A model generated the notes under the pieces. It had not been told where the DNA came from and did no database searches. It saw only the letters and a program-made list of their open reading frames with translations. Below, in pieces: positions 868-64,000 of a DNA stretch of 64,000 nt. The stretch lies in assembly GCF_042100115.1 (NCBI RefSeq), contig NC_091274.1:3224001-3288000 (forward strand). The letters are read 5' to 3'. This DNA is from Alternaria dauci (Eukaryota; Ascomycota; Dothideomycetes; Pleosporales; Pleosporaceae). Position numbers and translations under genes: made by a program. Position 1 is the first letter of the stretch. Every line of letters starts with the position of its first letter.

Positions 868-870
868 ATA

Positions 871-1683
871 CTATAGAGGTAAACAGTATAACTAGTATAG
901 GGTTAGAGGTAGGATAGTAGCTATAGGGGTCTACCCCTAGGGGTAAGATAGTATCTATAGAGTACTACCCTTAGGGGCGAGATAGTAGCCGTAGAGTGCT
1001 ACCCCCGGGGGCGAGATAGTAGCCGTAGAGTGCTGCCCCCAGGGGCGAGATAGTAGGCGCGGGTTGCGGCAAGTTACTGTAAGTTACTACCCCCGGGGGC
1101 GAGATAGTAGCCGTAGAGTGCTGCCCCCAGGGGCGAGATAGTAGGCGCGGGTTGCGGCAAGTTGCTGTAAGTTACTGCCCCTAGGGGCGAGATAGTAGGC
1201 GTACACGTAGCGCTAATGTTACTGTCGTTATGCTTGGTGAAATGCTGTGTCTGTAGATCTAATGAGTGAAATTGCACCTCCGCCTGTCTACTCTTCGTAG
1301 ATGGTGCGTATAGTAGTATCTAGATAGTAGATGTAGAGTGCTGTAAGTTGCTGCCCCCAGGGGCGAGATAGTAGGCGTAGAGTGCTGCCCCCGGGGCGAG
1401 ATAGTAGGCATAGAGTGCTGCCCCCGGGGGCGAGATAGTAGCCGTAGAGTGCTACCCCCGGGGGCGAGATAGTAGCCGTAGAGTGCTGCCCCCAGGGGCG
1501 AGATAGTAGCCGTAGAGTGCTGCCCCCGGGGGCGAGATAGTAGCCGTAGAGTGCTGCCCCCGGGGGCGAGATAGTAGCCGTAGAGTGCTGCCCCCGGGGG
1601 CGAGATAGTAGGCGTAGAGTGCTGCCCCCAGGGGCGAGATAGTAGCCGCGGATTGCCGTAAGGTGCTGCCCTTGGGGGCGAGA
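871..1683. repeat. 34-bp GC-rich minisatellite, copy 1 (interrupted)
   Basis: Tandem 34-bp units built around a CCCCCRGGGG core, followed by GCGAGATAGTAGCCGTAGAG. The first units (about 880-990) carry RIP-like changes (TG to TA, CA to TA, CG to TA) and the rest are clean. Unlike copies 2 and 3, this array contains a non-repeat stretch at about 1190-1330 and has fewer units. TTGCGGCAA occurs at 1064-1072 and 1152-1160. Because 34 is not a multiple of 3, the minus strand stays open through all three frames, producing meaningless repeat ORFs. Its left edge is the boundary of the whole tandem repeat. Confidence 0.9.
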
Positions 1684-1689
1684 GTGACT

Positions 1690-1841
1690 AACACTCACCG
1701 CTAGACTTACAGCGGCCTATGCAAGAATAGACGGCTTCTCGCCTACTTATACCTTGTGTAGTACCTCTCTATTGCTTTCTTACCTTCTCTTATCTCTTTT
1801 CCACTTACCTTAGTTTCTGTGTTCTTTCTAACAACGTTGCA
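1690..1841 (+). promoter_or_regulatory. Gene A promoter/leader, pyrimidine-rich
   Basis: Between the GC-rich array and the gene A start lies a CT-rich leader (about 1765-1835), a common feature just upstream of fungal start sites. A possible TATA-like stretch (CTTATACC) is at about 1744. The start ATG at 1842 is preceded by GTTGCA, with G at minus 3. The GC-rich array therefore sits directly against the promoter. Equivalent stretches are at 26417-26568 and 51144-51295. Confidence 0.5.
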
Positions 1842-4109
1842 ATGAAGCGCCCTCTAGCAAACGTTTTAACCAAAAACAGCAAACGGCAGCGTACGAATGA
1901 TCCAGAGATTGAAGAGACAACTCCTATCCACGAACAAGCTGCGCCATACCTACTCGCTATAGCGAAGTTTCCAATCGATGCGCTTAGCGCAGAATGGAGT
2001 TTTGGTGTCAATAGGTCTATTGACACAGCACACCAGCGCCGCCTCTGCGAGATCTTTAACGAAACTGGTATTCTTCGACGAGACCCTAGCCACCAACTGC
2101 AGATTGCCTGTTCTAAGGAACACGTAGAGCAGATGCTTCATCATCTGAAGGTGGAATTGCCAGCTCAGAGCACAGTTACTTCTGCCACGTTTGCGGATAA
2201 GGAAGGATTGGAATGGCCGTCGTTCAAGAGCTGGAAAAGCGTGACTGGAGGGACAGCGGAACTTATTACGGGTCACCATCGTGTAGAGGCATTCAAAGAG
2301 TATCTTCGCCTTCGGCAGTTAGGAGAAGAGGAGAGGTGGTGGGTGTGCCGCATCTACGATAAAGGCGGGTGCCCCTTAACGCGCGTACTGTGAACAACAG
2401 CCCCTAACCTTTTTAGACACGCTACCACCAGACACTCGTGTTAAACTTCGGGCGAATCGGGCCGATATTACGCTCCCTGACAATCATGGCCAGATATGGT
2501 CCGAGTTAACCAGCCTGTTCTGCACAAACGCCAATCTCTTTCAAGGCTCAAGCAAGTCAGTTGAGAAAGAGATGAGAGAGCATCTTCAGCTTAGTAGCCG
2601 CGTCAAGTTCCCAATACGGCGGCTAGTTACCCTGTGGAGAAATCAAAACTGGCAGCCCCTGCTTACGCGTTGGTGTTCTACCGCAATTGGGCAGGCAACG
2701 TTTAATCTCTCCACTTTTGAGTGGATGGCTAGTTGTCGGATAGATGACGTATGTGTAACCCGCCGCCGAAATACTCTGACCTGTCTTGCTAATCTACTGT
2801 CTAGCATTGGTTCGCTGCGTTTGAGAACGTACTTCGCATCTCTACATCTATTCGAAAGCAGTATGGGGTTGACGCCAGTTTAGCAGACTGGAACACGCTA
2901 GCTAGCCTGCCCCAGGCACGAAGTCCCCATGACGTACAAGACCTGTTCTACCCTGGCGAGGAGTTAGACAAGGATCCTGGCCCTTCCCATACGCGCCGGC
3001 AGGGCTTCTTCCCAACTCTAAGCAATGAGGCCTACCATGCGCTATACTCCACTGTACTTTCAAAGCCCACACACACGTACACAAACATCCTCGCTCTCTT
3101 AAAAACCCCGAAGAAAGAGGGGAAGCTTATGAGGAGTATTATGACCCACGTCAGCCAATGGGTAAACAGCGGATCCGCCAAGGTGTCTGACAGCGACAAC
3201 AACAAACCCGCACTGCGGAAGTATCTAGTGCCCGTGCTGCAGAGCAGGCATGCCGGCCAGGCTGATCAAAAATCTCTTGACCTCCAACAAGAAGTACTGC
3301 AACACGTACAGCAAAATGCGGAAGCATTCACAAGCTCTATACTAGACCGCTATATTGACGAGTACCCAAGTGCAGAGATCAAGAACTACGGCGCACGCTT
3401 CCAGCATAAGGTGTGGAGAGAACTGCTGTCAATTGTGACCAGTTTCACAGGGCCAACCTTGCACAACAAGCACTTGGCGTGCCTAATTCAAAGCGATACC
3501 TACATAGCGCGAACGCCTACAATCGCACAAATCGCGTGTGATGCTATCTGTCAGGTCCCTGAAGTCGTCAACGAACCTGCGCTCCAGTCTACTAGGGCAG
3601 CAAACGACTTGCTAGAGACAATTCAGGTCGCAATCACTGAATGGATGTCTAGACACACTCTAGAAGACTCTGATAATACAAGTCAAGAGGTTCCGCTGCC
3701 CGCAAGGCACTCTAACGCCGAGTCTAGCAGAGAGAGAGAGCTCAATCTGACAGTCTCTGAAGCGGCACGTAGCGTTTCAGCACGGTCGAGTTCGGACCAG
3801 CTTACCCCAGAGCTAATTTCTCACCCCTCAACTGAGCCGCGCATACCCAAGGCATCCCAGCAGACCAAAGTTCAAAACAGGGGGATTGAGGACTTGAGTC
3901 TAAGCGACCTTGCTGCAGCCCGAGAGAAACACCGTCAGAAACGCACCCTTAGCGACCAGGTAGCTGTAAAGGGCAGTGCTTCTCTAAGCGAAAAGACCCG
4001 AAAGAAACACCGTAAGAAACACACCCTTGGCGACCAGGTAGCTGTAGAGGGCAGTGCTTCTCCAAGCGAAAAGACTCGACAGAAACAACGAGGGGCTTGG
4101 AGGAAGTAA
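1842..4109 (+). CDS. Gene A copy 1: ParB/sulfiredoxin-like domain protein, 719 aa
   Basis: Proposed exons are 1842-2364, 2417-2748 and 2805-4109 (719 aa). Intron 2 is textbook (donor GTATGT, branch GCTAAT, acceptor TAG). Intron 1 ends in CTAAC plus CTTTTTAG but needs a GC donor (AAAG|GCGGGT); the join restores the frame as YDKDTLPPD. The N-terminal 170 residues carry a ParB/Srx-like signature: a NRxID stretch, then ITGHHRVEAF at residues 142-151, resembling the GxHR/GxRR box of that fold. Such domains bind DNA, hydrolyse NTP or act as nucleases; which applies here is unknown. The C-terminus is basic and holds a 26-aa tandem duplication rich in K and R, probably a nuclear or DNA-contact tail. 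The gene is followed 158 bp downstream by gene B on the same strand. Gene structure is well supported, the ParB assignment moderately. Confidence 0.75.
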
Positions 4110-4267
4110 TCCGTATCTGACCCTAGCCCTAACCCAATAGACACTGTTCCTCTCCTCTTTCCTCTGCACTGGATATTGTGATTCTCGATCATCATCTATC
4201 GATCTACCCTACAAGATCCTCAGCCCTTAGCCAACGTACTATTTTATATAATACTGTTCTTATCATC

Positions 4268-7200
4268 ATGTCTTTAGATCTTGCACAACAAAACGATAGC
4301 GATTACGATAACAGCAGTGCTGGAGAGGAGGACGGCCTGTACCAAGATGTGCAACCTGATGAGCACGATAGAGAACCTGACGAGCATGATGGAGAAGAAT
4401 ACCACGAGAGCAGCCTTGGGGACGAAGACGCAATAGCGAATAATCAACTTACCTGGGCTATTGACCACAGCGGAGGTGACCACCGACTACCTGGTGAGTT
4501 TAAGAGCATCCTACTTGTACGCATATAGTAACTACGTAGTAGTGAAGGGATTTATCAAGATGATAGACAGCCCCGAATTTAACGGCAGTAAGGCTATTGG
4601 AATGCTGCAGAAGCGATACACGATAGACTACGGATCGAGGCGCGTTGGGTCCCGACCAGCCAAGCCTGAGGACAAATTTATCCCTGAGTTCCACCTCGAC
4701 CTTATCATTATCATCGGCCGGCCGCTCCAACCCATTGTGAAGTTCTCTACGTTCTTCGACCACGTAACAATCAGCTTTAAACACTGGCGAGCTCCATACA
4801 GCGCTAAACACAGCCACGGACTGTCGTTTGATATGGAGCATCGTACCTTCCGTCTTGCAAAGGGTGGAACGCGCGAATCTTGGTTTATTGTTATGCACCC
4901 TGTCGATAGCACAGTAGACCCTCTTCTGTCAGGCAGCGAACGTCGCAAACGCCGCGAGAAGGCGTCTGAGCACAGCGCTCTCAAACCCTCCCATGCCCTG
5001 TTCCTTACGTCGTACATTAAGAAAGTCTTCCTTACAGGCGTATTACTTGGAGAGGGTGTTGAGGCTTCTTGGAAATTGGATGGACCCCAGTCGCAATCGA
5101 TCTCAATCGTCAAGTGGGAAACGTTCCAGGAGCAGTTCATGGAAGGGTGGCCAGAGTACGTGCGCAAGAACACGCAGGATCCGTTCTAGACTGAGAACCT
5201 GCCAGCGTTCCATGCGTATGACTACGGGCAGAACCTTCCAATTGAGTTGTCTACTGAGCAACTCAATAGTCTGCCTAAGGAAACCCGGTTGCGCCCTGAT
5301 GACGAGACGTCTGACTCTGATGACGAGACGTCTGACTCTGATGACGAGACGTCTGACTCTGATAGCGAGACGTCTGATTCTGGGAATGATTTGTCAAACT
5401 CTGGGAATGATTTACCAAACTCTCAGAATGATTTATCTAACTCTGAAGACGCGGCGGCTAGGTCCGAAGGCGGCGCAGAGGGGGCTACGCCCCCACAGAG
5501 CGGTACACAAACAGGCGATCCAATTCCCCCGCCGCACGACCATCAACAGCCGTTTGATAACTACACACAGGATCTTCTACGCGCACTAGAGGACAAGTAT
5601 AGACTGGAGAGCATTGAGACGGTCTCCTACGCGCTAGCGGTCGACATCCACTTAATAGCATCTTCCAACCTCCCTAACGCCTCTAATGACGTCGGTGTCA
5701 TTCTCGCACCTGCGCGCTGCCTCCTTGCCAATCGCAACAACGTTGTTCGCCAATACCAACACCCGCGCGACTTTACCTTCTACCCTCTTGCCTTCCATCC
5801 ATCGTACGGCAACTTCTCCTCCGCGCAGCCCCCAGCATTCCTACGCGACAACGTGCTCGCTGTAATGGAGGACAACATGAGCTATCAGAACAACGGTGCG
5901 AGCGTGTTGACTAGTGGTTATTTTCAGGCGTACTCCAACATTAAGCGAACTATACGCCATAGCCCCGGCAACTTACTTGCTACCAAGGGCATTGCCACGG
6001 CTGCCCTGACGCTGCCAGATCAGGATGGCAACCTAAACCCTCGGGTAGCGGCGAAGCGGCAGCGTTTACTGCGGAAATTGCGAGGCGAACAGACTCCTGA
6101 TAACCCTACGTCTTCCCAACCGTTCGCTCGCGAGCAACAGCGGATTAAAGCCGCTATAAAGGAAGAACTGTACGCGTTTAGGATGGAGCAAGTTCTGTCT
6201 GTGCAGGTGTCGCAGTTAGCTGACGGTCAACGGAATTTTGCGACAGTGCTTCAACCTATCCTCCAGCTAATCCGGTACTTCTCGCTGGAACAACCTACCT
6301 ACATTGATGTCCTCTTCGCGTTCAAAGAACGCATCTTTCCAAAGGTTCTCTCCTCCTTTGCTAGTCTGTTCGCGCACGCATCAGACGAGTTTTATCGTCG
6401 CTTCAAGGCTGCTGGCTCTAAAGGGCTGCCTTTTGCCCTAGCGGAAGGTGTGGCCGCATTCGATCGCCTTGGCAGCTACTGCTTTACTGGGTTCCCCCGG
6501 TCTTTAGTGGGCTCAGTGCTCGGGCCTCTCTGCACCATAGAAAGCATTGAGCAGGGTGGGTGGCCGTTTATCGACCCCAACATGCTCAATCTGCAAGGCA
6601 GTGGCCATGCTAACCTAGTGCGTTGGCCGCGCATGGACAATGGACGACCTATTATGATGCACGTTGCTTCCATTCGCCACCACTATGGGCCCCAGGTTGC
6701 CGCTTATTGTCACAGCGAGGTATGGTTCCGTGAGCTTGGTGGGCTCACAGGTAAAGGGCCTCGTGGCGCAGAAGAGTTCCTAGTAGAGGTGCTCGAAGAG
6801 ATGTGGAAGCCGCAGACAATCGCTTTCGTAACACACCAATTCTATCGCGCTCTGAACAAGGGCGGACGGGGCAATGCTCAAAGCGTAAGCCTAACAACAC
6901 TGCAGGCACGACAGGAGGCGCAAGAGCAGGTGACGCGTTGGGCTGAAAGCGAGCACCCCTTCTCTGCAGGGTTCGTGCAATTAGCGTTTCAAATATCAGC
7001 CGCTAACACAGTACAGGGAGTACGAGTCGATCTTTCCTGTCTTTTATCCAGAAGCGACTTCGGGTTTGAGAAGCCAGACGCGACGCGACTTTGCGCAAGA
7101 GCTCTACTGGGAGTGTGTTAACAGCCATGGCCAATCTAGTAGCTACCTCTTTTCAAAGAACGCGAGCTGGTTCACTGTGTTACGCGCTGCCGTGCAACAC

Positions 7201-8143
7201 GCCAGGGCCAAGGCGATGAAGGAGGAATACTGGATCAGCGCCATAATGTCAGCTCTAGCGGCGTGCCGCATTGACTGTGTGCCTGGTTCATACCATGGCC
7301 GATTGAGCTACCGGAGAATGACGCGGCTAGTCGGTAACGTTCCGGCCCCATCCGCTATAGCGGCGAGACCGGGCAGCCTCAAGCGGGCAGCGATTGAGGC
7401 AGTACACCAAGCAAAGCGGCGCTCGCAAACAAAGAGTACTATCGACTTTGGTTGCCAAATCCCTTTTAACGCCATCCCGCCGCTAGTTGAAAAAGGTTTT
7501 CAGCAGTTGGACGGCCAGTTCTCAAAGTCCGGCATGAATCAGAAGGTTCGTGAACACTACCACAGAGCACGTCAGTGCCTCATCGAGTGCTTAGGTCAGC
7601 CAAAATGCGATCTAATGCTCATGTTGGTGTTAACCCTTGCATCCTCTTCAGCTACCCCTACTGTAGCGGTGAATGCGACTGAGTTTTCCAAAGGACCAAC
7701 CAAGAACTCTGAAATGTTTGCGGCCGCCTTGGTAACAAGAATGCTCTGGTCTCTTCGACCAGATTACTTCCCGTCGGAGGAAGACGATGGTTGGGTGCTT
7801 TCGGTACGGGAGATGACGAAGAAGATTGGTAAGACTTCCCTAAGAGAGGCCCTTTTCCCAAGTAAGAAGCATTGCTAACATAGTACTATCTGGGGTAGAG
7901 CACAAAGGTTGCAACAACCGCTTCCTTCGACAACTGCAATGGATTCGGGTTACTAGTGGGCGTCGAGACTCCCCAAGGAACAGCGACATAGCGATCAACT
8001 ATGATTCCGTTCTTGAGAAGAGACGTACAGAGTTAATGCGACTACGGAGCGATGCTAAAGGTTTTATTCAATGCGTGTTTGGTAGTTCTGATTATGCATG
8101 GGTTGACCGATGTCATACTATTATACAGGAGTCCCCAGTGTAG
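4268..8143 (+). pseudogene. Gene B copy 1: unknown protein, broken by a premature stop
   Basis: Proposed exons are 4268-4493, 4540-6974, 7012-7828 and 7884-8143. Intron 1 has donor GTGAGT and tandem acceptors TAGTAG (4539 or 4542). Intron 4 of the track, 7829-7883, has GTAAGA, GCTAAC and TAG. Intron 6975-7011 is only 37 bp, with branch CTAAC, and is the least certain. The full product would be 1,245 aa, but codon 292 is TAG at 5187-5189, where copy 3 has TGG. Seven 21-bp units at 5298-5444 encode acidic DDETSDS and then NDLSNS-like heptads. A basic ERRKRREK stretch could be a nuclear signal. No known domain was recognised. Translation could restart at a downstream ATG, but the copy is most simply read as inactivated. 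Confidence 0.75.
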
Positions 8144-8783
8144 AGTAAGCTATTATAGCTTCCACTATAATTTTACATCTTCTCTCCTATAAAACACGTA
8201 TATACTATATACATCTTCTATCCTATACAGCTTTTGAAGAGATTAATACACGTTACGTAGTGTTATGATTTTTTAAAATATTTCGTATTAACTGTAAATT
8301 CAGAAAAACACCAACCCCAATATTAACCGTACTATCGTTGTCGCATGTAATCCGTTTCTTAATCTTAACTGTGTCTCTTCTCTACTATTTACATAATTAA
8401 CGTAATAGTAAAAAGACGCAGGCACTAGAGAATAGAGCCTGCGAAGTCTACATTGCATTAGTGGCTGAAGTAGCACAGTGTAGAGGCATCCTGTTACTAT
8501 TCTCCGCAGGCAAAGGTAATAGCACCTTGCGCGGCAACCTTTAAGGAAAAGAGAGGAAGCCGCTATGTGTTTCGCTCTTCTTTGTAGTTATTTGTAGATT
8601 TGTAGCCTGCGGTGTTGTTGACTTATCTGTATCGCAATACGACAGCAGCTTCCTAGCAGGCTGTAATCGTCGAGAGCCACGGTACAGCCGGTGACTTAGA
8701 CGACAGACCTAGCCTAACACTAAATTGGCAAGCTTCCGCAACACGGACGCATACACCCCACCTGCTAATAAGCACCGCTATGA
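8144..8783. other. Convergent intergenic region B/C with stem-loop
   Basis: Genes B (+) and C (-) end facing this 640-bp spacer. Its first 260 bp are AT-rich with several candidate polyadenylation stretches. An inverted repeat CGCAGGC (8417-8423) / GCCTGCG (8437-8443) can form a 7-bp stem with a 13-nt loop, and further CCTGCG/GCAGGC copies follow at about 8510 and 8608. The sequence GTAAAAAGACGCAGGCAC (8408-8425) is nearly repeated downstream of gene E (22857-22873). No gene is visible. Confidence 0.55.
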
Positions 8784-10774
8784 CTAGCAACTCTCGTCTA
8801 CCTCACTACTTCCGTAGAGTGTCGCTAGAAGCTCAGCATTGTGCTCTTCGAGCCCATCACTCTTTTTCCGCAGCGCATAGTTCAGGGTCGTCAGGTAACC
8901 CGGTTTATTGTTCAACCTATAGGGCTTACAGGACAGAATAATTCAAGTACCGACATCTGTCGCAATGGCGCCGGCGATGCCGGGATACTTTCCGATGCGT
9001 CAGAATCAGTGTCATCTTCGGCTTCGCTGTCTGGAATCTCTGTTAACCCCACCGCCGTAGCTAGCGCATTCGCTTCAATGCTAAGCCTCTCCTTTCCAGC
9101 AATCGGCGCACCAGTAATTCCATCCGGCCCTAGCCAGGCTTCGAGGGCCCTGCTTGCCGTGCAAATTTCCGGCCGTTCGCGCTTCACTAGCTCAAGAAAA
9201 ACATCGCGCTGGTTCTTCCGCAGCACACGCTCGAGCCAATGGTTTGAGACCTCTTCGTGGGGTATGAGCAGCAGCGATCCCCAGCCTAGAGCTTGAACTA
9301 TGTCGAACCATCGTGTCGCTCGCTTTAGGCGGTAACGAAAGGCTGCGTGGTCAGATTTAGATGGTGATTGGCAAACCAGATGGACCAAATATGTGATAGC
9401 CTCTGTTCGTGCCTGGCCCTTCCCGTACCTGTTGCGAGTTCTGTCGTTACTGGCTAGACGATCAGCGACCTGGATTTCGTCGACCTTGCGAGCGTACGCC
9501 TTCCCTAGCAAAGCGAAAGCCCAGCGAGTGCCAATGTTTACAGCTGCAAGCATCGTCTCGTACCGTGTGCACATGTCCCAGGCAAAGCAGAATGCATTGT
9601 CGGCATCAGTATGAAGTGTTGCGCTACTATCCACTGACTGCGACATTTGCGTCTGGGTAAGAACATAACGATCTACTGGTTTTACCAAGAACGGCGTGCC
9701 CTGTTTCCGCCAATTATGCAGGAACTGCGCAGCGCTGTACTGCGAGGTTGCATTTCCAAAAGCACGCGCTTTTGCTAGCATGCTGCAGGCAGTATAGTAG
9801 GGTGTTGGCGAGGCTGTATAGAAATCAGCATCTTCCGCGACTTTTTGCTTGAAGATCCAAGAGATCGTCGGCTCATCGTCTGGCGCAATGCTGCCGTACG
9901 CCATACGTTCCTGCGCAGGCATCTTCTCAGGCGGTTCCTTTAAGCCTATCGCCTCGAGCTTTATTACACGCGATCTTTCTAGCTTTCTTGTACGCCGTAG
10001 CTCTGCAAGACGATTCTTGTTTGTAACTGTTGCGGACCTCTTTACGGATAGAGGCGTCGTCGCACTCTGGTTTTCGCTGTCCTCGTCGCTTGTTCCGCGC
10101 TCGTGTCCCCCCTCCGCTCTAGCTGTGTCTTTGCCAGCGTGTACTGTCATAGTGTTGACTTCGCTAGCCCTAGCCGTCGATTCGTCCGCGCTGTCCTCCT
10201 GTATTGCTAGGCGGTTTAAGCTGTTGGCACGGATCTCGCTGCGAATAGGCGATGAGGAGGCTGGACGTTTACGGTACGGCACAAGGTCGCCTGTAGCCCT
10301 CTGTGCTGATGGCGGTATGCTATCGTCCTTGTCTGAGTCTATAGCCATGCGGTCCTCCGCGATGCCTTCCGTTGGCGTCATTAGCCGCGCTGTAGTTAAG
10401 TTTCTAGGCTCTAGAGACTTACTACTAGCAAAGTCCATAGCAGCGCTTGTGAGACGCCCCCAATTTTCTGCGTCAAGTGTGCTGGCACCCAGCGTCTCTT
10501 TCAGCAGCCATATCGCATCTAGTGTCGAGTGGGCTATGAAAACCGGCTTGCACGCTTCGTCGTCGCCTACTTCTGGAACGATCCATCCCGCGTATCGTAC
10601 ATCGCCTGGTACACGGCATGGTTCTGCGAGACGACGCGCAAGAAATCTGCTGTAGGACGGGTTAGGTGGGCTGTATGCTAAGTTGTTAGCGACTGTAGCG
10701 TCCCACTGTGCAGGAAAGCCTCTTCCGCTGTGTTTATCCTGACAATGGTCACTATCGAGCTGTAACTGATCCAT
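8784..10774 (-). CDS. Gene C copy 1: unknown protein, about 650 aa
   Basis: The ATG at 10774 has a strong fungal context (AAA before, G after). One long frame runs to a stop at 8912, but the next frame clearly continues as coding sequence, including KPGYLTTLNYALRKK, to a stop at 8784-8786. A 38-bp intron (8917-8954, donor GTCGGT, acceptor TATAG) joins the two in phase and gives 650 aa; the exact splice sites are uncertain. The protein has an acidic/serine-rich middle (residues about 150-240), a basic helix-like stretch (RLAELRRTRKLERSR), a Trp- and Arg-rich C-terminal half that may be globular, then an acidic SEAEDDTDSDASES run. No family was recognised. It faces gene B and lies upstream of the gene-poor segment. 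Confidence 0.7.
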
Positions 10775-11218: not shown

Positions 11219-11290
11219 GGTTGCGATATGGCTTGGGACGCAAGTTGCCGCAACGGTTGGTTGCCAGCGAGGGCAAGTTACGCAGAGACC
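11219..11290. repeat. Isolated 68-bp repeat unit
   Basis: One diverged unit of the 68-bp repeat that forms the array at 12244-12456 (core GCGATATGGCTTGGGACGC, then TTGCCGCAA and CGGTTGGTTGC). It is separated from that array by about 950 bp holding the MITE and the decayed gene, as if those had been placed between members of an older array. Confidence 0.8.
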
Positions 11291-11364
11291 ACGGTATGGC
11301 TTCATACACCTACTAACACCTTTTGGGCAACTCTCTGGACTGTCCAAGGTACTGCATGACAGAG

Positions 11365-53563: not shown

Positions 53564-53721
53564 TCCGTATCTGACCCTAGCCCTAACCCAATAGACACTG
53601 TTCCTCTCCTCTTTCCTCTGCACTGGATATTGTGATTCTCGATCATCATCTATCGATCTACCCTACAAGATCCTCAGCCCTTAGCCAACGTACTATTTTA
53701 TATAATACTGTTCTTATCATC

Positions 53722-56700
53722 ATGTCTTTAGATCTTGCACAACAAAACGATAGCGATTACGATAACAGCAGTGCTGGAGAGGAGGACGGCCTGTACCAAG
53801 ATGTGCAACCTGATGAGCACGATAGAGAACCTGACGAGCATGATGGAGAAGAATACCACGAGAGCAGCCTTGGGGACGAAGACGCAATAGCGAATAATCA
53901 ACTTACCTGGGCTATTGACCACAGCGGAGGTGACCACCGACTACCTGGTGAGTTTAAGAGCATCCTACTTGTACGCATATAGTAACTACGTAGTAGTGAA
54001 GGGATTTATCAAGATGATAGACAGCCCCGAATTTAACGGCAGTAAGGCTATTGGAATGCTGCAGAAGCGATACACGATAGACTACGGATCGAGGCGCGTT
54101 GGGTCCCGACCAGCCAAGCCTGAGGACAAATTTATCCCTGAGTTCCACCTCGACCTTATCATTATCATCGGCCGGCCGCTCCAACCCATTGTGAAGTTCT
54201 CTACGTTCTTCGACCACGTAACAATCAGCTTTAAACACTGGCGAGCTCCATACAGCGCTAAACACAGCCACGGACTGTCGTTTGATATGGAGCATCGTAC
54301 CTTCCGTCTTGCAAAGGGTGGAACGCGCGAATCTTGGTTTATTGTTATGCACCCTGTCGATAGCACAGTAGACCCTCTTCTGTCAGGCAGCGAACGTCGC
54401 AAACGCCGCGAGAAGGCGTCTGAGCACAGCGCTCTCAAACCCTCCCATGCCCTGTTCCTTACGTCGTACATTAAGAAAGTCTTCCTTACAGGCGTATTAC
54501 TTGGAGAGGGTGTTGAGGCTTCTTGGAAATTGGATGGACCCCAGTCGCAATCGATCTCAATCGTCAAGTGGGAAACGTTCCAGGAGCAGTTCATGGAAGG
54601 GTGGCCAGAGTACGTGCGCAAGAACACGCAGGATCCGTTCTGGACTGAGAACCTGCCAGCGTTCCATGCGTATGACTACGGGCAGAACCTTCCAATTGAG
54701 TTGTCTACTGAGCAACTCAATAGTCTGCCTAAGGAAACCCGGTTGCGCCCTGATGACGAGACGTCTGACTCTGATGACGAGACGTCTGACTCTGATGACG
54801 AGACGTCTGACTCTGATAGCGAGACGTCTGATTCTGGGAATGATTTGTCAAACTCTGGGAATGATTTACCAAACTCTCAGAATGATTTATCTAACTCTGA
54901 AGACGCGGCGGCTAGGTCCGAAGGCGGCGCAGAGGGGGCTACGCCCCCACAGAGCGGTACACAAACAGGCGATCCAATTCCCCCGCCGCACGACCATCAA
55001 CAGCCGTTTGATAACTACACACAGGATCTTCTACGCGCACTAGAGGACAAGTATAGACTGGAGAGCATTGAGACGGTCTCCTACGCGCTAGCGGTCGACA
55101 TCCACTCAATAGCATCTTCCAACCTCCCTAACGCCTCTAATGACGTCGGTGTCATTCTCGCACCTGCGCGCTGCCTCCTTGCCAATCGCAACAACGTTGT
55201 TCGCCAATACCAACACCCGCGCGACTTTACCTTCTACCCTCTTGCCTTCCATCCATCGTACGGCAACTTCTCCTCCGCGCAGCCCCCAGCATTCCTACGC
55301 GACAACGTGCTCGCTGTAATGGAGGACAACATGAGCTATCAGAACAACGGTGCGAGCGTGTTGACTAGTGGTTATTTTCAGGCGTACTCCAACATTAAGC
55401 GAACTATACGCCATAGCCCCGGCAACTTACTTGCTACCAAGGGCATTGCCACGGCTGCCCTGACGCTGCCAGATCAGGATGGCAACCTAAACCCTCGGGT
55501 AGCGGCGAAGCGGCAGCGTTTACTGCGGAAATTGCGAGGCGAACAGACTCCTGATAACCCTACGTCTTCCCAACCGTTCGCTCGCGAGCAACAGCGGATT
55601 AAAGCCGCTATAAAGGAAGAACTGTACGCGTTTAGGATGGAGCAAGTTCTGTCTGTGCAGGTGTCGCAGTTAGCTGACGGTCAACGGAATTTTGCGACAG
55701 TGCTTCAACCTATCCTCCAGCTAATCCGGTACTTCTCGCTGGAACAACCTACCTACATTGATGTCCTCTTCGCGTTCAAAGAACGCATCTTTCCAAAGGT
55801 TCTCTCCTCCTTTGCTAGTCTGTTCGCGCACGCATCAGACGAGTTTTATCGTCGCTTCAAGGCTGCTGGCTCTAAAGGGCTGCCTTTTGCCCTAGCGGAA
55901 GGTGTGGCCGCATTCGATCGCCTTGGCAGCTACTGCTTTACTGGGTTCCCCCGGTCTTTAGTGGGCTCAGTGCTCGGGCCTCTCTGCACCATAGAAAGCA
56001 TTGAGCAGGGTGGGTGGCCGTTTATCGACCCCAACATGCTCAATCTGCAAGGCAGTGGCCATGCTAACCTAGTGCGTTGGCCGCGCATGGACAATGGACG
56101 ACCTATTATGATGCACGTTGCTTCCATTCGCCACCACTATGGGCCCCAGGTTGCCGCTTATTGTCACAGCGAGGTATGGTTCCGTGAGCTTGGTGGGCTC
56201 ACAGGTAAAGGGCCTCGTGGCGCAGAAGAGTTCCTAGTAGAGGTGCTCGAAGAGATGTGGAAGCCGCAGACAATCGCTTTCGTAACACACCAATTCTATC
56301 GCGCTCTGAACAAGGGCGGACGGGGCAATGCTCAAAGCGTAAGCCTAACAACACTGCAGGCACGACAGGAGGCGCAAGAGCAGGTGACGCGTTGGGCTGA
56401 AAGCGAGCACCCCTTCTCTGCAGGGTTCGTGCAATTAGCGTTTCAAATATCAGCCGCTAACACAGTACAGGGAGTACGAGTCGATCTTTCCTGTCTTTTA
56501 TCCAGAAGCGACTTCGGGTTTGAGAAGCCAGACGCGACGCGACTTTGCGCAAGAGCTCTACTGGGAGTGTGTTAACAGCCATGGCCAATCTAGTAGCTAC
56601 CTCTTTTCAAAGAACGCGAGCTGGTTCACTGTGTTACGCGCTGCCGTGCAACACGCCAGGGCCAAGGCGATGAAGGAGGAATACTGGATCAGCGCCATAA

Positions 56701-57597
56701 TGTCAGCTCTAGCGGCGTGCCGCATTGACTGTGTGCCTGGTTCATACCATGGCCGATTGAGCTACCGGAGAATGACGCGGCTAGTCGGTAACGTTCCGGC
56801 CCCATCCGCTATAGCGGCGAGACCGGGCAGCCTCAAGCGGGCAGCGATTGAGGCAGTACACCAAGCAAAGCGGCGCTCGCAAACAAAGAGTACTATCGAC
56901 TTTGGTTGCCAAATCCCTTTTAACGCCATCCCGCCGCTAGTTGAAAAAGGTTTTCAGCAGTTGGACGGCCAGTTCTCAAAGTCCGGCATGAATCAGAAGG
57001 TTCGTGAACACTACCACAGAGCACGTCAGTGCCTCATCGAGTGCTTAGGTCAGCCAAAATGCGATCTAATGCTCATGTTGGTGTTAACCCTTGCATCCTC
57101 TTCAGCTACCCCTACTGTAGCGGTGAATGCGACTGAGTTTTCCAAAGGACCAACCAAGAACTCTGAAATGTTTGCGGCCGCCTTGGTAACAAGAATGCTC
57201 TGGTCTCTTCGACCAGATTACTTCCCGTCGGAGGAAGACGATGGTTGGGTGCTTTCGGTACGGGAGATGACGAAGAAGATTGGTAAGACTTCCCTAAGAG
57301 AGGCCCTTTTCCCAAGTAAGAAGCATTGCTAACATAGTACTATCTGGGGTAGAGCACAAAGGTTGCAACAACCGCTTCCTTCGACAACTGCAATGGATTC
57401 GGGTTACTAGTGGGCGTCGAGACTCCCCAAGGAACAGCGACATAGCGATCAACTATGATTCCGTTCTTGAGAAGAGACGTACAGAGTTAATGCGACTACG
57501 GAGCGATGCTAAAGGTTTTATTCAATGCGTGTTTGGTAGTTCTGATTATGCATGGGTTGACCGATGTCATACTATTATACAGGAGTCCCCAGTGTAG
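53722..57597 (+). CDS. Gene B copy 3: intact unknown protein, 1,245 aa
   Basis: Only copy in the window without the premature stop: codon 292 is TGG (54641-54643). Proposed exons are 53722-53947, 53994-56428, 56466-57282 and 57338-57597. The last exon adds a C-terminus reading VLSGVEHKGCNNRF to IIQESPV. The N-terminal 75 residues are acidic, residues about 80-290 may be globular, a heptad array of DDETSDS/NDLSNS units (54752-54898) forms an acidic linker, and the C-terminal two thirds is Trp- and Arg-containing, possibly globular. No transmembrane stretch or known catalytic motif was recognised. Codon 447 is Ser here, Leu in the other copies. The 37-bp third intron is the weakest part of the model. 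Confidence 0.75.
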
Positions 57598-58237
57598 AGT
57601 AAGCTATTATAGCTTCCACTATAATTTTACATCTTCTCTCCTATAAAACACGTATATACTATATACATCTTCTATCCTATACAGCTTTTGAAGAGATTAA
57701 TACACGTTACGTAGTGTTATGATTTTTTAAAATATTTCGTATTAACTGTAAATTCAGAAAAACACCAACCCCAATATTAACCGTACTATCGTTGTCGCAT
57801 GTAATCCGTTTCTTAATCTTAACTGTGTCTCTTCTCTACTATTTACATAATTAACGTAATAGTAAAAAGACGCAGGCACTAGAGAATAGAGCCTGCGAAG
57901 TCTACATTGCATTAGTGGCTGAAGTAGCACAGTGTAGAGGCATCCTGTTACTATTCTCCGCAGGCAAAGGTAATAGCACCTTGCGCGGCAACCTTTAAGG
58001 AAAAGAGAGGAAGCCGCTATGTGTTTCGCTCTTCTTTGTAGTTATTTGTAGATTTGTAGCCTGCGGTGTTGTTGACTTATCTGTATCGCAATACGACAGC
58101 AGCTTCCTAGCAGGCTGTAATCGTCGAGAGCCACGGTACAGCCGGTGACTTAGACGACAGACCTAGCCTAACACTAAATTGGCAAGCTTCCGCAACACGG
58201 ACGCATACACCCCACCTGCTAATAAGCACCGCTATGA
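57598..58237. other. Convergent intergenic region B/C, copy 3
   Basis: Same as 8144-8783, with the stem-loop at 57871-57897. No gene seen. Confidence 0.55.
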
Positions 58238-60228
58238 CTAGCAACTCTCGTCTACCTCACTACTTCCGTAGAGTGTCGCTAGAAGCTCAGCATTGTGCTC
58301 TTCGAGCCCATCACTCTTTTTCCGCAGCGCATAGTTCAGGGTCGTCAGGTAACCCGGTTTATTGTTCAACCTATAGGGCTTACAGGACAGAATAATTCAA
58401 GTACCGACATCTGTCGCAATGGCGCCGGCGATGCCGGGATACTTTCCGATGCGTCAGAATCAGTGTCATCTTCGGCTTCGCTGTCTGGAATCTCTGTTAA
58501 CCCCACCGCCGTAGCTAGCGCATTCGCTTCAATGCTAAGCCTCTCCTTTCCAGCAATCGGCGCACCAGTAATTCCATCCGGCCCTAGCCAGGCTTCGAGG
58601 GCCCTGCTTGCCGTGCAAATTTCCGGCCGTTCGCGCTTCACTAGCTCAAGAAAAACATCGCGCTGGTTCTTCCGCAGCACACGCTCGAGCCAATGGTTTG
58701 AGACCTCTTCGTGGGGTATGAGCAGCAGCGATCCCCAGCCTAGAGCTTGAACTATGTCGAACCATCGTGTCGCTCGCTTTAGGCGGTAACGAAAGGCTGC
58801 GTGGTCAGATTTAGATGGTGATTGGCAAACCAGATGGACCAAATATGTGATAGCCTCTGTTCGTGCCTGGCCCTTCCCGTACCTGTTGCGAGTTCTGTCG
58901 TTACTGGCTAGACGATCAGCGACCTGGATTTCGTCGACCTTGCGAGCGTACGCCTTCCCTAGCAAAGCGAAAGCCCAGCGAGTGCCAATGTTTACAGCTG
59001 CAAGCATCGTCTCGTACCGTGTGCACATGTCCCAGGCAAAGCAGAATGCATTGTCGGCATCAGTATGAAGTGTTGCGCTACTATCCACTGACTGCGACAT
59101 TTGCGTCTGGGTAAGAACATAACGATCTACTGGTTTTACCAAGAACGGCGTGCCCTGTTTCCGCCAATTATGCAGGAACTGCGCAGCGCTGTACTGCGAG
59201 GTTGCATTTCCAAAAGCACGCGCTTTTGCTAGCATGCTGCAGGCAGTATAGTAGGGTGTTGGCGAGGCTGTATAGAAATCAGCATCTTCCGCGACTTTTT
59301 GCTTGAAGATCCAAGAGATCGTCGGCTCATCGTCTGGCGCAATGCTGCCGTACGCCATACGTTCCTGCGCAGGCATCTTCTCAGGCGGTTCCTTTAAGCC
59401 TATCGCCTCGAGCTTTATTACACGCGATCTTTCTAGCTTTCTTGTACGCCGTAGCTCTGCAAGACGATTCTTGTTTGTAACTGTTGCGGACCTCTTTACG
59501 GATAGAGGCGTCGTCGCACTCTGGTTTTCGCTGTCCTCGTCGCTTGTTCCGCGCTCGTGTCCCCCCTCCGCTCTAGCTGTGTCTTTGCCAGCGTGTACTG
59601 TCATAGTGTTGACTTCGCTAGCCCTAGCCGTCGATTCGTCCGCGCTGTCCTCCTGTATTGCTAGGCGGTTTAAGCTGTTGGCACGGATCTCGCTGCGAAT
59701 AGGCGATGAGGAGGCTGGACGTTTACGGTACGGCACAAGGTCGCCTGTAGCCCTCTGTGCTGATGGCGGTATGCTATCGTCCTTGTCTGAGTCTATAGCC
59801 ATGCGGTCCTCCGCGATGCCTTCCGTTGGCGTCATTAGCCGCGCTGTAGTTAAGTTTCTAGGCTCTAGAGACTTACTACTAGCAAAGTCCATAGCAGCGC
59901 TTGTGAGACGCCCCCAATTTTCTGCGTCAAGTGTGCTGGCACCCAGCGTCTCTTTCAGCAGCCATATCGCATCTAGTGTCGAGTGGGCTATGAAAACCGG
60001 CTTGCACGCTTCGTCGTCGCCTACTTCTGGAACGATCCATCCCGCGTATCGTACATCGCCTGGTACACGGCATGGTTCTGCGAGACGACGCGCAAGAAAT
60101 CTGCTGTAGGACGGGTTAGGTGGGCTGTATGCTAAGTTGTTAGCGACTGTAGCGTCCCACTGTGCAGGAAAGCCTCTTCCGCTGTGTTTATCCTGACAAT
60201 GGTCACTATCGAGCTGTAACTGATCCAT
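58238..60228 (-). CDS. Gene C copy 3: unknown protein, about 650 aa
   Basis: Identical to copies 1 and 2. Start at 60228, candidate intron 58371-58408, stop codon at 58238-58240. Confidence 0.7.
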
Positions 60229-60672
60229 TTTAGAACCAAGGCTGACGCTCTAAGCCAGCGATTAGTGTGTGGGTAGAAAAGTAGTAAGAATAACAGCAGA
60301 GAAAAGAAGACGTGGCATGGAAAGCAGGGGGCCAGGGCGTGCCGGCAAGGTGCGGCATATAGTCGCACCGACTAACAAGGTAGAGTACGGTCCCTAATCC
60401 CAGAAGAGGTCGCGTCCTTGAGTGTAGAATACATGTTATTTCTCTTTTTAGAGTGCTATTCTTATATAATATTGAATACTAAAGTTTAGTTGTTGAAGAC
60501 ACGAAAGATCTCAAAGAGGTAGTCCTAGATAGGGAGGGTCGCTCTGCCTCGTACATCTAAGAGCGCAGTTCCAAATAATATAACACTAGTATTTGCCTTT
60601 AGAGGTGCAGCGTGAAGAAGGTTGGAGCGCCAGCCCTAAGGTAGTTAAAGCGTCCGAATGTTCCAGCTGCAA
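60229..60672. promoter_or_regulatory. Upstream region of gene C, copy 3
   Basis: Same as 10775-11218; no gene seen. Confidence 0.4.
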
Positions 60673-60744
60673 GGTTGCGATATGGCTTGGGACGCAAGTT
60701 GCCGCAACGGTTGGTTGCCAGCGAGGGCAAGTTACGCAGAGACC
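60673..60744. repeat. Isolated 68-bp repeat unit, copy 3
   Basis: Single diverged unit as in the other copies. Confidence 0.8.
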
Positions 60745-60818
60745 ACGGTATGGCTTCATACACCTACTAACACCTTTTGGGCAACTCTCTGGACTGTCCA
60801 AGGTACTGCATGACAGAG

Positions 60819-61231
60819 TTGTCAACAATCAAGCCAATCAAGCTGGGTGCCCCAGCTTAGCTTGATTAGTGGGTACCTCTACCTCAGCTTAGCTTGATTG
60901 GCTTGATGGTTAAAATTAATAAGCTTGGCTTGTTTAGCTTGATTAGCTTAACAAAATTAATCCCCCTTTCAAGAAGCTTAAAAGGGGATAGTGTAGGGGT
61001 ATCCTTATATAATCTTATCACCACGTGATCTTATCACCACGTGACCTTACTTACTTACTTTAACCTTCTTTATAGAGTATTAATTCTATCAAGCCAATCA
61101 AGCCAAACAATCAAGCTAGCTTATAGTAGCTTGGCTTAATTGATTTATACCTCTACTCTAGCTTAGCTTGATTGATACGCCAGCTTGATGCCCCAGCTTG
61201 ATAGCGATCAAGCTGGCTTGATTGTTGACAA
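60819..61231. mobile_element. MITE-like foldback element, copy 3
   Basis: Same 413-bp element; two single-base differences from copies 1 and 2, G for T at 61134 and A for G at 61165. The terminal inverted repeats are unchanged. Confidence 0.75.
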
Positions 61232-61651
61232 GTCTGCTGCATGAACAGACGGTTGTTGAACCAATGAACAAACTGATTCCTAATGGTTGTCGCTGTAGAG
61301 AAAACGTCGAGGTAGGCAGTATACTCAGTCCTGGACGGCACGCTGGGACTCTGCCTTGGCCACTGGTTCCTCAGATCTTCCACGAACGAGTCGATCGCCC
61401 TAGTTTGATTCTCCTGAAATGCGGCGTGCAATCCTGTCGTGATGCTGCTGTTCAGTCTCCGATTCTCGCTTTGGTAGATTCGCTTCATTGGAATCTGCAA
61501 ACGCCTTGGTGTTGCACAGCACCGTGTTCCGAATCGCATTCTTGTTGAAGTCCTGTCCCTGGTCTAGCTCGTATTTCAGTGCAGTAGGTGGCTGTACCGC
61601 CGAGAGCTTATATACCCTATAGGCTGCAGCTAGAGCCTGTATCGCATCCAT
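61232..61651 (-). pseudogene. Decayed gene truncated by the MITE, copy 3
   Basis: Same remnant as 11778-12197 with the same frameshift. Confidence 0.5.
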
Positions 61652-61697
61652 GTCTGACTTTTCGGCGTAAGCCGTCGTACAAAACTATGTCATTAGA

Positions 61698-62114
61698 TCA
61701 CGATATGGCTTGGGAAGCAAGTTGCCGCAACGGTTGGTTGCTAGCGAGGGCACGTTGCGAAGCGGTTGCGATATGGCTTGGGACGCAAGTTGCCGCAACG
61801 GTTGGTTGCTAGCGAGGGCACGTTGCGAAGCGGTTGCGATATGGCTTGGGACGCAAGTTGCCGCAACGGTTGGTTGCTAGCGAGGGCACGTTGCGAAGCG
61901 GTTGCGATATGGCTTGGGACGCAAGTTGCCGCAACGGTTGGTTGCTAGCGAGGGCACGTTGCGAAGCGGTTGCGATATGGCTTGGGACGCAAGTTGCCGC
62001 AACGGTTGGTTGCTAGCGAGGGCACGTTGCGAAGCGGTTGCGATATGGCTTGGGACGCAAGTTGCCGCAACGGTTGGTTGCTAGCGAGGGCACATTGCGA
62101 AGCGGTTGCGAAGC
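61698..62114. repeat. 68-bp tandem repeat, 6 units (copy 3)
   Basis: Six units instead of three, adding exactly 204 bp. The extra units match the internal units of the shorter arrays, as expected from unequal exchange or replication slippage. Confidence 0.93.
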
Positions 62115-62426
62115 ATGGAGTAGTATTTAGTGTGGTAGGTTGCATTCGGCCTGACTCGGAAGACCACGCGCCCGCAAGTCAGGCTGACAGCAGCGCTTCC
62201 ACTCACAACGTTACCTAGGTACAGCAGTAACTTGCTATTGCTAACAGAGGCAACTTTCTAGGCTTCCTACAGTGGCAGCAGTAGGCAATACGTACAGCGT
62301 TACTCTATGTTAGTCTGGTGCGCCTATATCGGTATTGAGTCATGGGATCGATTTTGTACTACAGACTACTTGAGAAAGTTACAGTATGTCTCCGCGATTT
62401 CCGGGCAGTCATTCCTTCAAAGTATC
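62115..62426. other. Downstream spacer of gene D, copy 3
   Basis: Same as 12457-12768; no gene recognised. Confidence 0.4.
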
Positions 62427-64000
62427 TCAGTCTTGCGCCTTTATCGTGCTCTGAAAATAGCCTTTAGCTTGGAGGTTCTTGACTATCCTCATGTCAATGG
62501 TGTCTCGGCATCCTTGAGGGGCAGTAGTTGTCAGCCATTCAACGAAGACTTCGGCGAACCTCGTATTAATGCGATGTTGGCGTTTCGCAGCCTGTTCAGC
62601 AATATGCGCGTTACTCTGAGGCTCAAGACCATGCAAGATGTTGCCCTCTGTAAGCGATATTGACTGACACATCGCGCCCGTTGCACCCACGAGAATATAG
62701 ACGCCATCGTCGACCTTGCCGCCCCCCTCATCCCAGACCTTCTTCCACTTGGGTACTTCCTTGTCCCGTGTCACGGCGTTGTAGGCATGAACAACGTGTT
62801 TCTCTCCAAACGTTTGGCAGATGTAAGCGTAGATCAGAGCACGTGACAATGTCGAGCTCGCGAGTACGACGTACTTGGCTCTGTACTCTAGGGTTTCTCC
62901 TTGGTGTGCGCGAGGACGGGGATGGGGAATGGTCGTCTTCTTGTTGCGTAGCTCTTCCAACGTCTTGTGAATGTATGCGACCTTGGCTGAGCCCTTGCAA
63001 GCCTCCAATGCAATGTCCCAGATGAATGAGTGTCGAATTGTGTCGCTGTTCACAAGAGCTGTGCGGAGGTTTTCGTTGTTATTACTGAGACTGCGGTGAG
63101 GGTCGAGGATCCGATCTCCGATAAGCTGGTCGGCATCCCAATTGTTGATTGCGGCCATAAGGTTAGGAAAGATGCTGACATGTCGCGCAATGCGGTAGGC
63201 CTCGGAGTCTGCGACTGCGCCTGGGGGCATGGTGGGCTTGGACTTCTTGCTGCTCTCTCCCCCTTGGTCTTCCCAGGCCTCCACTTCCTTCTCGTAATGC
63301 TGTTTGACCGCGGCTAGCACGCGAGACTCTTCTTGTTCCACGTTAGCGAAGTAACACGCATCGTGCTGCAGATACGTGAAGTTGACAGTAAGCTTTGCTG
63401 TGACAACGTTGAGGGGTTTGCGCCAGGGATCCAGACTGTCGGTGTCGCGCATTATGAAACACCACCGAACCATGTCCCGAAAATTGTTCAGCATGTCCTT
63501 GATCTCGCCGGACTGGAGTTGCTTGTCGAGCGCGGACTGTACTTTGTTCTTTTCCTTCTCGGTTTTACAACGCTGCATCCCGTCGTGATACTTCTTGTAG
63601 CTATTGAGGAGCTTTCTCCACACTGCAGTACAATCTACCCCTTTCAAATTGGCTAAAGCTTTGGCGCCTGGATCGGTGGACTGCTTTTGTACTAACCGCT
63701 GGATCACGTGGTCGGCGAATCCTAACACCAGGTCGACCCCGTTCGTGAGAGCTGTGCCCGTCTGACCTACTATACCAGTACGATGATCATTGGGCCTGTA
63801 GTCCAAAATGGGGTCGATGATGTGGGTGTAGGTTTGAGTTTTTGTACCCGGGGCGGTATGCAGCTCGTCGACCATGATTATTGCAGCGCAACCAACGAAT
63901 GTGACCAACCACACCTCGACCCTCACACCTTTGTCGTCTGTCCATATTTGCATGCGACGAGCCTGCCAAGGGCCGAGACCATCAAGCGCAGGCAATCGTG
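62427..64000 (-). CDS. Gene D copy 3: SNF2-type helicase, C-terminal part
   Basis: The 3' 1,574 bp of gene D, cut by the window edge; the start lies beyond 64000. It includes VDELH, GQTGTALTNG and the C-terminal motifs V and VI, all unchanged from copies 1 and 2. Confidence 0.88.
   Translation of the reverse strand, partial: RLPALDGLGPWQARRMQIWTDDKGVRVEVWLVTFVGCAAIIMVDELHTAPGTKTQTYTHIIDPILDYRPNDHRTGIVGQTGTALTNGVDLVLGFADHVIQRLVQKQSTDPGAKALANLKGVDCTAVWRKLLNSYKKYHDGMQRCKTEKEKNKVQSALDKQLQSGEIKDMLNNFRDMVRWCFIMRDTDSLDPWRKPLNVVTAKLTVNFTYLQHDACYFANVEQEESRVLAAVKQHYEKEVEAWEDQGGESSKKSKPTMPPGAVADSEAYRIARHVSIFPNLMAAINNWDADQLIGDRILDPHRSLSNNNENLRTALVNSDTIRHSFIWDIALEACKGSAKVAYIHKTLEELRNKKTTIPHPRPRAHQGETLEYRAKYVVLASSTLSRALIYAYICQTFGEKHVVHAYNAVTRDKEVPKWKKVWDEGGGKVDDGVYILVGATGAMCQSISLTEGNILHGLEPQSNAHIAEQAAKRQHRINTRFAEVFVEWLTTTAPQGCRDTIDMRIVKNLQAKGYFQSTIKAQD

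What the first reader, a model, noticed from the sequence alone, without database searches (positions are those of the whole stretch)
868..64000. Head-to-tail array of a 24.7-kb multigene unit with near-identical copies
The same five-gene unit restarts at 871, 25,283 and 50,010 with a fixed period of 24,727 bp. The copies are not perfect clones (stop/no stop, VNTR number, MITE SNPs, junction transitions), so they look like real amplification rather than an assembly echo. Tandem multigene units this long are unusual in RIP-competent fungi, and the coding parts show almost no RIP although they are long identical duplicates. The array must be very recent, RIP inactive, or the locus protected as rDNA is.
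Basis: partly seen in the sequence, partly recalled or inferred. Interest (0 to 1): 0.9.

Follow-up and report, generated by a model that had tools for sequence, protein, structure and literature searches.

The report
Self-capping mobile element at fungal telomeres
The repeated 25-kb block is a mobile-looking element that sits at nearly every chromosome end of this fungus, always starts at exactly the same base and ends in its own telomere, which suggests that it re-caps broken chromosome ends.

Summary
The tandem array is real, but it is part of something larger. The four-unit array that contains the window runs to a telomere, and 36 such units occupy 19 of 20 assembled chromosome ends, pointing to the telomere; the twentieth ends in rDNA. 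Terminal copies that were read end in an AT-rich tail, an 18-bp satellite, AACCG and (TTAGGG)n. All 42 left edges found start at the same base after AT (AT|ACTATAGAGG): 22 flanks outside the unit, of which only one pair is alike, and 20 in older copies. Where a comparison exists, DNA distal to the join is missing; no edge has telomere repeats in the 50-100 bp upstream. Four old interior copies are truncated or deleted and heavily RIPed (repeat-induced point mutation). RIP is not off: 20 of 23 core transitions between young copies are at CpA/TpG. Escape from it is not special to the array: a dispersed retroelement has 27 copies at 99% or more. The unit encodes a UPF1-like helicase with zinc knuckles, a frame with SNF2-like motifs and three unknowns, no recognised reverse transcriptase. 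Best reading: a terminal mobile element joined by a fixed 5' end to uncapped ends, homogenised by recombination. The joining enzyme is unknown; copy number is untested by reads.

The parts
1..869 (.). Chromosome-arm sequence just inside the array, RIP-marked; window 400-604 is homologous to the flanks of C2 left and C8 right, where the unit joins 265-270 bp earlier
   Evidence: RIP composite index 1.68; flank comparison
870..25281 (+). Unit 1 (24,412 bp), 5' edge AT|ACTATAGAGG at 870; its 3' cap is absent where unit 2 joins
25282..50008 (+). Unit 2 (24,727 bp)
50009..64000 (+). Unit 3, continues outside the window to C3:3299083; a fourth unit follows and ends in the cap and (TTAGGG)n at C3:3325536-3325693
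25316..26375 (.). 34-bp tandem repeat behind the 5' edge (unit 1: within 904-1648; unit 3: 50043-51102)
1731..4109 (+). Gene A: three overlapping ORFs (introns or frameshifts unresolved); weak DUF3723 match below cut-off
4437..7878 (+). Gene B, no convincing family; one 894-aa frame in unit 3, interrupted by TAG in units 1 and 2 (RIP-type change); further ORF 6985-7878 in another frame
8912..10795 (-). Gene C, 627-aa frame, no family (repeated at 33639-35522 and 58366-60249)
12247..12453 (.). 68-bp VNTR, 3 copies (36974-37180: 3; 61701-62111: 6)
12769..17655 (-). Gene D, 1628-aa frame with SNF2-like ATPase motifs read by eye (ADDMGMGKT, DELHT); no Pfam, NCBIfam or PDB match
18172..22647 (+). 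Gene E, 1491-aa frame: four CCHC zinc-knuckle motifs and a UPF1/SEN1-like SF1 helicase (AAA_11/AAA_12); 33 copies genome-wide, 28 without a stop in the 1276 aa compared (one of these split by a frame change)
23203..24196 (.). 22-bp tandem repeat, 45 copies (unit 2: 47930-48923)
24200..25281 (.). AT-rich RIP-like tail; at chromosome ends it runs on about 500 bp into the 18-bp satellite and telomere, inside the array it is cut where the next unit joins

Best explanation
The unit is a terminal mobile element. It has a fixed 5' end (AT|ACTATAGAGG) and a 3' end that is the chromosome end itself: AT-rich tail, 18-bp satellite, AACCG and (TTAGGG)n. When a chromosome end has lost its telomere by erosion or breakage, a complete unit is joined to it by its 5' end at an AT dinucleotide. 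Everything distal is gone, and the new unit supplies a fresh cap and telomere. Repeated rounds, plus recombination between ends, build head-to-tail arrays whose inner units lack TTAGGG. Copies that become interior are truncated or deleted and eroded by RIP. Shown here: the end-wide distribution, orientation, exact 5' edge, AT rule, missing distal DNA where a comparison exists, broken RIP-marked relics, and no recognised RT. Inferred: that joining is an enzymatic or primed event driven by the element. A possible route is strand displacement from a nick at the 5' edge to run-off at the telomere by the encoded helicase, or priming of an uncapped 3' end ...AT on a template that ends at this edge.
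For: 36 units on 19 of 20 ends, towards the telomere; each of 33 gene E copies pairs with its own edge 17-23 kb upstream, and the 3 edges without gene E are at contigs that stop inside a unit. Cap/telomere junction: 16 exact hits at 13 ends. 42 of 42 edges start at the same base after AT. 22 flanks outside the unit; one pair alike (C2 left/C8 right), plus matches of 26-33 bp between two others; background AT 9.3%. On C3 right the homologous flank runs 265-270 bp beyond the join seen on C2 left and C8 right. Nested joins lie in the tail, its extension, the satellite and the 34-bp repeat; at 8 distinct sites whose uninterrupted sequence is known, the target reads A-T there. No edge has two tandem telomere hexamers in the 100 bp (one case 50 bp) upstream. 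Relics stop at unit base 3339 (C8 left) and 1538 (C3 right). At C1, C3 and C8 right the outermost unit has another edge subtype than the inner ones, so outer units can come from elsewhere.
Against: No transposase, recombinase, nuclease or RT was recognised; AlphaFold2 took no job (11 tries for gene C, one for gene B). Identical upstream junctions with different edge subtypes (C1R3/C1R4; C3R3/C5R2) show that ordinary recombination also reshapes edges; at C6 right and C4 left the subtype order does not show distal addition. The C1 left relic is not simply 3'-truncated: it keeps pieces of unit 22280-22504 and 24520-24575 behind the 5' edge. The C3R4 edge keeps a cap-like G (AGTATAGAGG), which hints at microhomology annealing. 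The edges were found by a pattern, so 5'-truncated relics without an edge could be missed; the two body searches scored capped candidate lists. One genome only; no reads, no sister strain, no observed event.
Confidence: 0.6

Rival explanations
1. Y'-type subtelomeric element spread only by homologous recombination and break-induced replication between ends, as in telomere-failure survivors; no element-specific joining.
For: Helicase gene, VNTRs, end-wide distribution and homogenisation are Y'-like. Some array junctions are identical copies, and edge subtypes are swapped at the same junction. In Pyricularia, telomere failure copies subterminal sequences onto deprotected ends and amplifies them in tandem (PMC8381367; section 28 and part 1 of section 30 read).
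Against: Homology-driven copying does not give one exact 5' base at 22 outside flanks of which only one pair is alike, nor an AT before 42 of 42 edges. All 33 unit bodies have their edge.
Confidence: 0.22
2. RNA-mediated end addition as for HeT-A: an antisense RNA whose 3' end is the unit's 5' edge is primed by uncapped chromosome ends, with a reverse transcriptase supplied in trans.
For: Precise centromere-proximal edge, distal truncation and head-to-tail arrays resemble terminal retrotransposition as reviewed in PMC5537684 (passages). Gene E has CCHC knuckles. The genome has retroelement RTs elsewhere.
Against: No RVT_1 match lies in a unit among 112 genomic hits. A 25-kb template with genes on both strands is very long. 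No poly(A) or telomere tract at the joined edge.
Confidence: 0.13
3. Assembly echo: the copies or joins are artefacts.
For: Some contig ends look misjoined: after the telomere C3 carries DNA that reads as mitochondrial (cox3-like and LAGLIDADG-like frames by eye), C4 carries DNA identical to C6:1308358-1310358 over the 2,001 bases tested, and C9 left starts with a stray unit fragment. Three right ends break inside a unit. Units 1 and 2 are identical over 23 kb.
Against: Copies differ in RIP sites, VNTR numbers, edge subtype and flanks. The same join rule occurs at unlike flanks and in RIP-aged relics.
Confidence: 0.05

Closest known systems
Saccharomyces Y' elements and fungal telomere-linked helicase (TLH) regions
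   Same: Helicase-bearing, VNTR-rich repeats at many ends, tandem, homogenised
   Different: About 25 kb against 5.2-6.7 kb for Y'; UPF1-like helicase and SNF2-like motifs rather than Y'-Help or RecQ; exact 5' edge at unlike flanks; no telomere repeats just before any edge, whereas 145 of 234 tandem Y' junctions hold interstitial telomere sequence (PMC13177704, passages)
Telomeric non-LTR retrotransposons (MoTeR, FoTeR, HeT-A/TART, Giardia GilT/GilM)
   Same: Directional end arrays and truncation on one side; RIP-damaged copies and VNTRs in FoTeR (PMC12857005, abstract and sections 19 and 20; others from PMC5537684 passages)
   Different: No RT recognised; edge not in telomere repeats; 25 kb with genes on both strands; carries its own satellite and telomere
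Terminons (Athena elements of bdelloid rotifers)
   Same: Up to 40 kb, extra ORFs, terminal, often truncated (PMC5537684 passages)
   Different: Terminons always hold an RT; none recognised here
Helitrons, incl. the telomeric helitron-like elements on 11 of 12 chromosome-end extensions of Oscheius tipulae
   Same: AT target rule (Helitron rule recalled), a helicase, no RT; a precedent for helitron-like elements concentrated at chromosome ends (PMC8022731, passages)
   Different: No Rep/HUH or PIF1 domain found, no known Helitron termini, 3' end is the telomere

Membership tests
Y' element / TLH region | Subtelomeric repeat shared by many ends and facing the telomere | tested here: met
   19 of 20 ends, 36 units
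Y' element / TLH region | Encodes Y'-Help or RecQ-type helicase | tested here: not met
   Gene E matches UPF1/IGHMBP2-like SF1; gene D has SNF2-like motifs only
Y' element / TLH region | Telomere tracts between tandem copies or proximal to them (common, not universal) | tested here: not met
   None in the 50-100 bp before 42 edges; in the window only three one-mismatch TTAGGGTTAGGG sites, inside unit bodies
Telomeric non-LTR retrotransposon / Terminon | Reverse transcriptase | tested here: not met
   112 RVT_1 hits in the genome, none inside a unit; no RT among 9 ORFs in Pfam
Telomeric non-LTR retrotransposon / Terminon | One precise end joined to the chromosome, the other end truncated | tested here: met
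   but the C1 left relic is internally deleted rather than truncated
Helitron | Rep (HUH) and PIF1-type helicase | tested here: not met
   No such Pfam match in 9 ORFs at E <= 0.1; SF1 helicase is UPF1-like
Helitron | Insertion at an AT dinucleotide | tested here: met
   42 of 42 edges; AT present in the target at 8 distinct sites of known sequence. Whether the T belongs to element or target is open
Helitron | 5' TC and 3' hairpin-CTRR (definition recalled) | tested here: not met
   5' end is (T)ACTATAGAGG; 3' end is AACCG(TTAGGG)n
Starship | Captain tyrosine recombinase (DUF3435, recalled) at the 5' end | tested here: not met
   No DUF3435 in 9 ORFs; only a sub-threshold DUF3723 match in gene A

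The most novel reading that the evidence does not exclude
A DNA-level, RT-free terminal transposon: an element that mobilises from an exact 5' end to run-off at the telomere, is joined by that 5' end at A^T to broken chromosomes, and so replaces lost ends with its own 25-kb cap. This would be a mobile telomere cap that outlives RIP by re-copying itself at ends while interior copies decay.
Probability: 0.33. Interest if true: 0.9.

Novelty: new variant of a known kind. Interest (0 to 1): 0.72.

Why it matters
If right, one element family caps nearly every chromosome of a fungus that has TTAGGG telomeres, at a fixed joining base, without a recognised reverse transcriptase. That would add a DNA-based route to the known ways in which mobile elements and telomeres support each other, and it gives a concrete assay: the AT|ACTATAGAGG edge can be scored in any read set. 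RIP relics and near-identical copies of one element in the same genome also let the balance between RIP and re-copying be measured. The listings of the literature searches here showed no title or abstract start that describes such an element; most subscription papers and bioRxiv preprints are outside that library, and the listed papers were mostly not opened.

Tried and rejected
Rejected: RIP inactivity; rDNA-like protection as a needed explanation; rDNA itself (no Rfam match in window 25000-50300; the SSU rRNA gene is at C7 right); Starship, Helitron and non-LTR membership. Led nowhere: protein database searches (one weak hit for gene E, none for gene D); viral contigs with gene E (the gene D scan failed on a frame error, and was not repeated); PDB for genes B and D (none) and C (one hit at E 0.26); AlphaFold2. 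Interior matches of the last 213 bp of the tail were not followed. In one search the edge was not found in the C2 left piece as given, so that row is uninformative; its comparison comes. The AT background is from 19 fetched flank pieces that include about 46 bases of unit each.
Full report
Where the window lies. The window is C3:3224001-3288000 of a 34.9-Mb, 10-contig genome. Its first unit begins at window 870; three more follow at 25282, 50009 and C3:3299084, and the array ends in a telomere tract up to about C3:3325693. The contig goes on for 120 kb after that telomere. I read 2 kb at either end of this tail: the last 2 kb carry a cox3-like frame and LAGLIDADG-like frames in the mould mitochondrial code (families assigned by eye) and the first 2 kb a group I intron, so I take the tail for joined mitochondrial DNA. 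The 21-kb tail after the C4 right telomere is 100% identical to C6:1308358-1310358 over the 2,001 bases tested, which I also take for a misjoin. C9 left begins with a unit fragment in the opposite direction (unit 90-3164) joined to CCCTAA; it has no edge because the contig starts inside it.

Copy census. The 5' edge occurs 42 times. Four are old interior edges (C1:55749, C3:3193724, C5:2870965, C8:50941) and two belong to short 5' fragments just inside a complete unit (C4:155788, C9:2614210). That leaves 36, on 19 of 20 assembled ends. Gene E is found 33 times in these arrays; each copy pairs with its own edge 16.9-23.1 kb upstream. The three edges without gene E are at C2, C5 and C6 right, where the contig stops inside a unit. 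The twentieth end, C7 right, ends in rDNA. Arrays hold 1 to 6 units, and orientation is towards the telomere. 36 x 25 kb is about 2.5% of the assembly.

Terminal structure. The chromosome ends read have the AT-rich tail, about 500 bp more of AT-rich DNA, an 18-bp satellite (TAACTAAGAAGCCCTAAR)n, GCTGTAACCG and (TTAGGG)n. The satellite/telomere junction pattern is found 16 times at 13 ends with no mismatch although two were allowed. C5 left and C10 right show it with small indels. C2 left has a telomere tract whose cap I did not read. C6 left has three such junctions within 830 bp.

The 5' edge. I aligned 41 edges and the last one; one search recounts all 42. All begin at the same base and all are preceded by AT. 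Twenty-two flanks lie outside any unit. All-against-all BLAST of 200-bp flanks finds C2 left and C8 right alike over their length and 26-33-bp matches between C2 right and the old C8 edge. AT makes 9.3% of dinucleotides in the pieces used. The C2 left and C8 right flanks are 90% identical to window 405-604 and 400-599, and there the arm of C3 continues for 265-270 bp before its own join. It therefore shows what is missing at the other two ends. Inside arrays the upstream sequence is an older unit cut at different places: in the tail, in its extension, in the satellite, or in the 34-bp repeat; at C5 right it is an old relic. For 8 distinct sites the uninterrupted sequence is known and has the A-T at the joining point (in the satellite, in A-type monomers); for C8 right the same script found no match at two mismatches. 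No edge has two tandem telomere hexamers in the 100 bp (50 bp for C3R4) upstream.

Growth of arrays. Two edge subtypes exist (AGTATAACTAG-like, 28 of 42, and AGTACTACTAG-like, 14 of 42, counted). At C1, C3 and C8 right the outermost unit has the second subtype and the earlier ones the first, so outer units can come from elsewhere. Against a simple rule: C6 right has the reverse order, C4 left has the second subtype in the middle, and C5 right has only the second. The same upstream junction also occurs with both subtypes (C1R3/C1R4; C3R3/C5R2), which is the mark of recombination. Copies on different ends can be as alike as neighbours: the C3 left copy matches 8,801 bp of the window unit at 15,868 of 15,872 bits (17 of 61 candidates scored).

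RIP. The 22 core tiles of unit 2 (1 kb each, window 26283-48282) have a composite RIP index of -1.13 to 0.43, 8 of them slightly positive; the 34-bp-repeat tile (2.48) and the last two tiles (0.45 and 1.70) are higher. In three 10-kb pieces within 34 kb inside the array 29 of 30 tiles are at 1 or more, the other at 0.96. Among 24 sequence pieces compared with unit 2 (121 kb of core, repeat arrays excluded) I found 24 variable core sites: 23 transitions, of which 20 at CpA/TpG, and 1 transversion. The expected share is 25.5%, binomial p = 1e-9; sites shared by copies are counted once, but linked changes in one copy are not independent. The interior relics are RIP-marked copies of the same element: C8 left has 668 C>T/G>A against 13 reverse transitions and 42 transversions, C5 right 73 against 7 and 10, C1 left 37 against 3 and 9, C3 right 134 against 12 and 35. 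All four keep the 5' edge. C8 left stops at unit 3339 and C3 right at 1538; C5 right is cut by the next unit; C1 left has 5' bases followed by pieces of unit 22280-22504 and 24520-24575, so it is internally deleted rather than only 3'-truncated (only 0.4-10 kb of each was read). A dispersed retroelement (gypsy-like by eye) has 27 of 40 scored copies at 99% or more over 1 kb, 21 with a frame of 1362-1391 aa, beside many relics with stops. Three DNA methylase genes are present, one DIM-2-like and one RID-like by eye. So RIP has acted strongly in the past and weakly since, for dispersed and terminal repeats alike.

Genes. Gene E: AAA_12 (3.6e-27), AAA_11 and zinc knuckles, best PDB relatives UPF1, then NAM7 and SEN1, four CCHC motifs. 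Of 33 copies 28 have no stop in the 1276 residues compared; the C6 right copy among them is split by a frame change. Gene D: SNF2-like motifs by eye only. Gene A: sub-threshold DUF3723. Genes B and C: nothing convincing. No Rfam family in window 25000-50300.

Mechanism. Recombination explains identity and some array changes. It does not explain one exact base at unlike flanks. A defined 5' end, an AT target, loss of distal DNA and a telomeric 3' end are what one would expect if a unit is displaced or copied from a nick at its 5' edge to the physical chromosome end, and the 5' end is then joined to an uncapped end. The helicase would fit strand displacement; the nuclease is not identified, so this remains inference. 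The C3R4 edge with a cap-like G is one hint for annealing of the chromosome's 3' end to the edge sequence.

Comparison. PMC8381367 (section 28 and part 1 of section 30 read, other passages) shows telomere failure followed by tandem amplification and capture in Pyricularia, with telomere tracts as borders. PMC12857005 (abstract, sections 19 and 20), PMC5537684 (passages), PMC13177704 (passages), PMC8022731 (passages) and PMC7473861 (passages) supply the other comparisons. The closest in life style are Y' arrays and HeT-A arrays; the closest in target rule are Helitrons. The element fails a defining test of each.

Noticed in passing
C3:3325694-3445196 (L026, L027): DNA that reads as mitochondrial (cox3-like, LAGLIDADG-like, group I intron) follows the C3 right telomere in the contig; probable misjoin. 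Only 2 kb at either end read.
   Followed up: partly
C4:3421540-3442401 (L015, L028): Post-telomere tail; the tested 2,001 bases are a 100% copy of C6:1308358-1310358, probable misjoin.
   Followed up: partly
C9:1-3235 (L022): A + strand unit fragment (unit 90-3164) is joined directly to a CCCTAA tract, facing the true end; misjoin or end fusion.
   Followed up: no
C6:1-830 (L035): Three telomere tracts interleaved with satellite at one end, as if the end had been re-capped.
   Followed up: no
C9:207199, C4:268737, C4:238546, C4:213235, C4:245270, C7:119933, C9:158978: Interior copies (85-89%) of the last 213-244 bp of the unit's AT-rich tail; origin of the tail or old 3' ends.
   Followed up: no
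C1:2125901-2126900 (L085): Retroelement (gypsy-like by eye) with 27 copies at 99% or more next to graded relics with stops.
   Followed up: partly
window 25282-25325 (also units 1 and 3): Telomere-like TAGGGTTAG about 30 bp behind the 5' edge.
   Followed up: no
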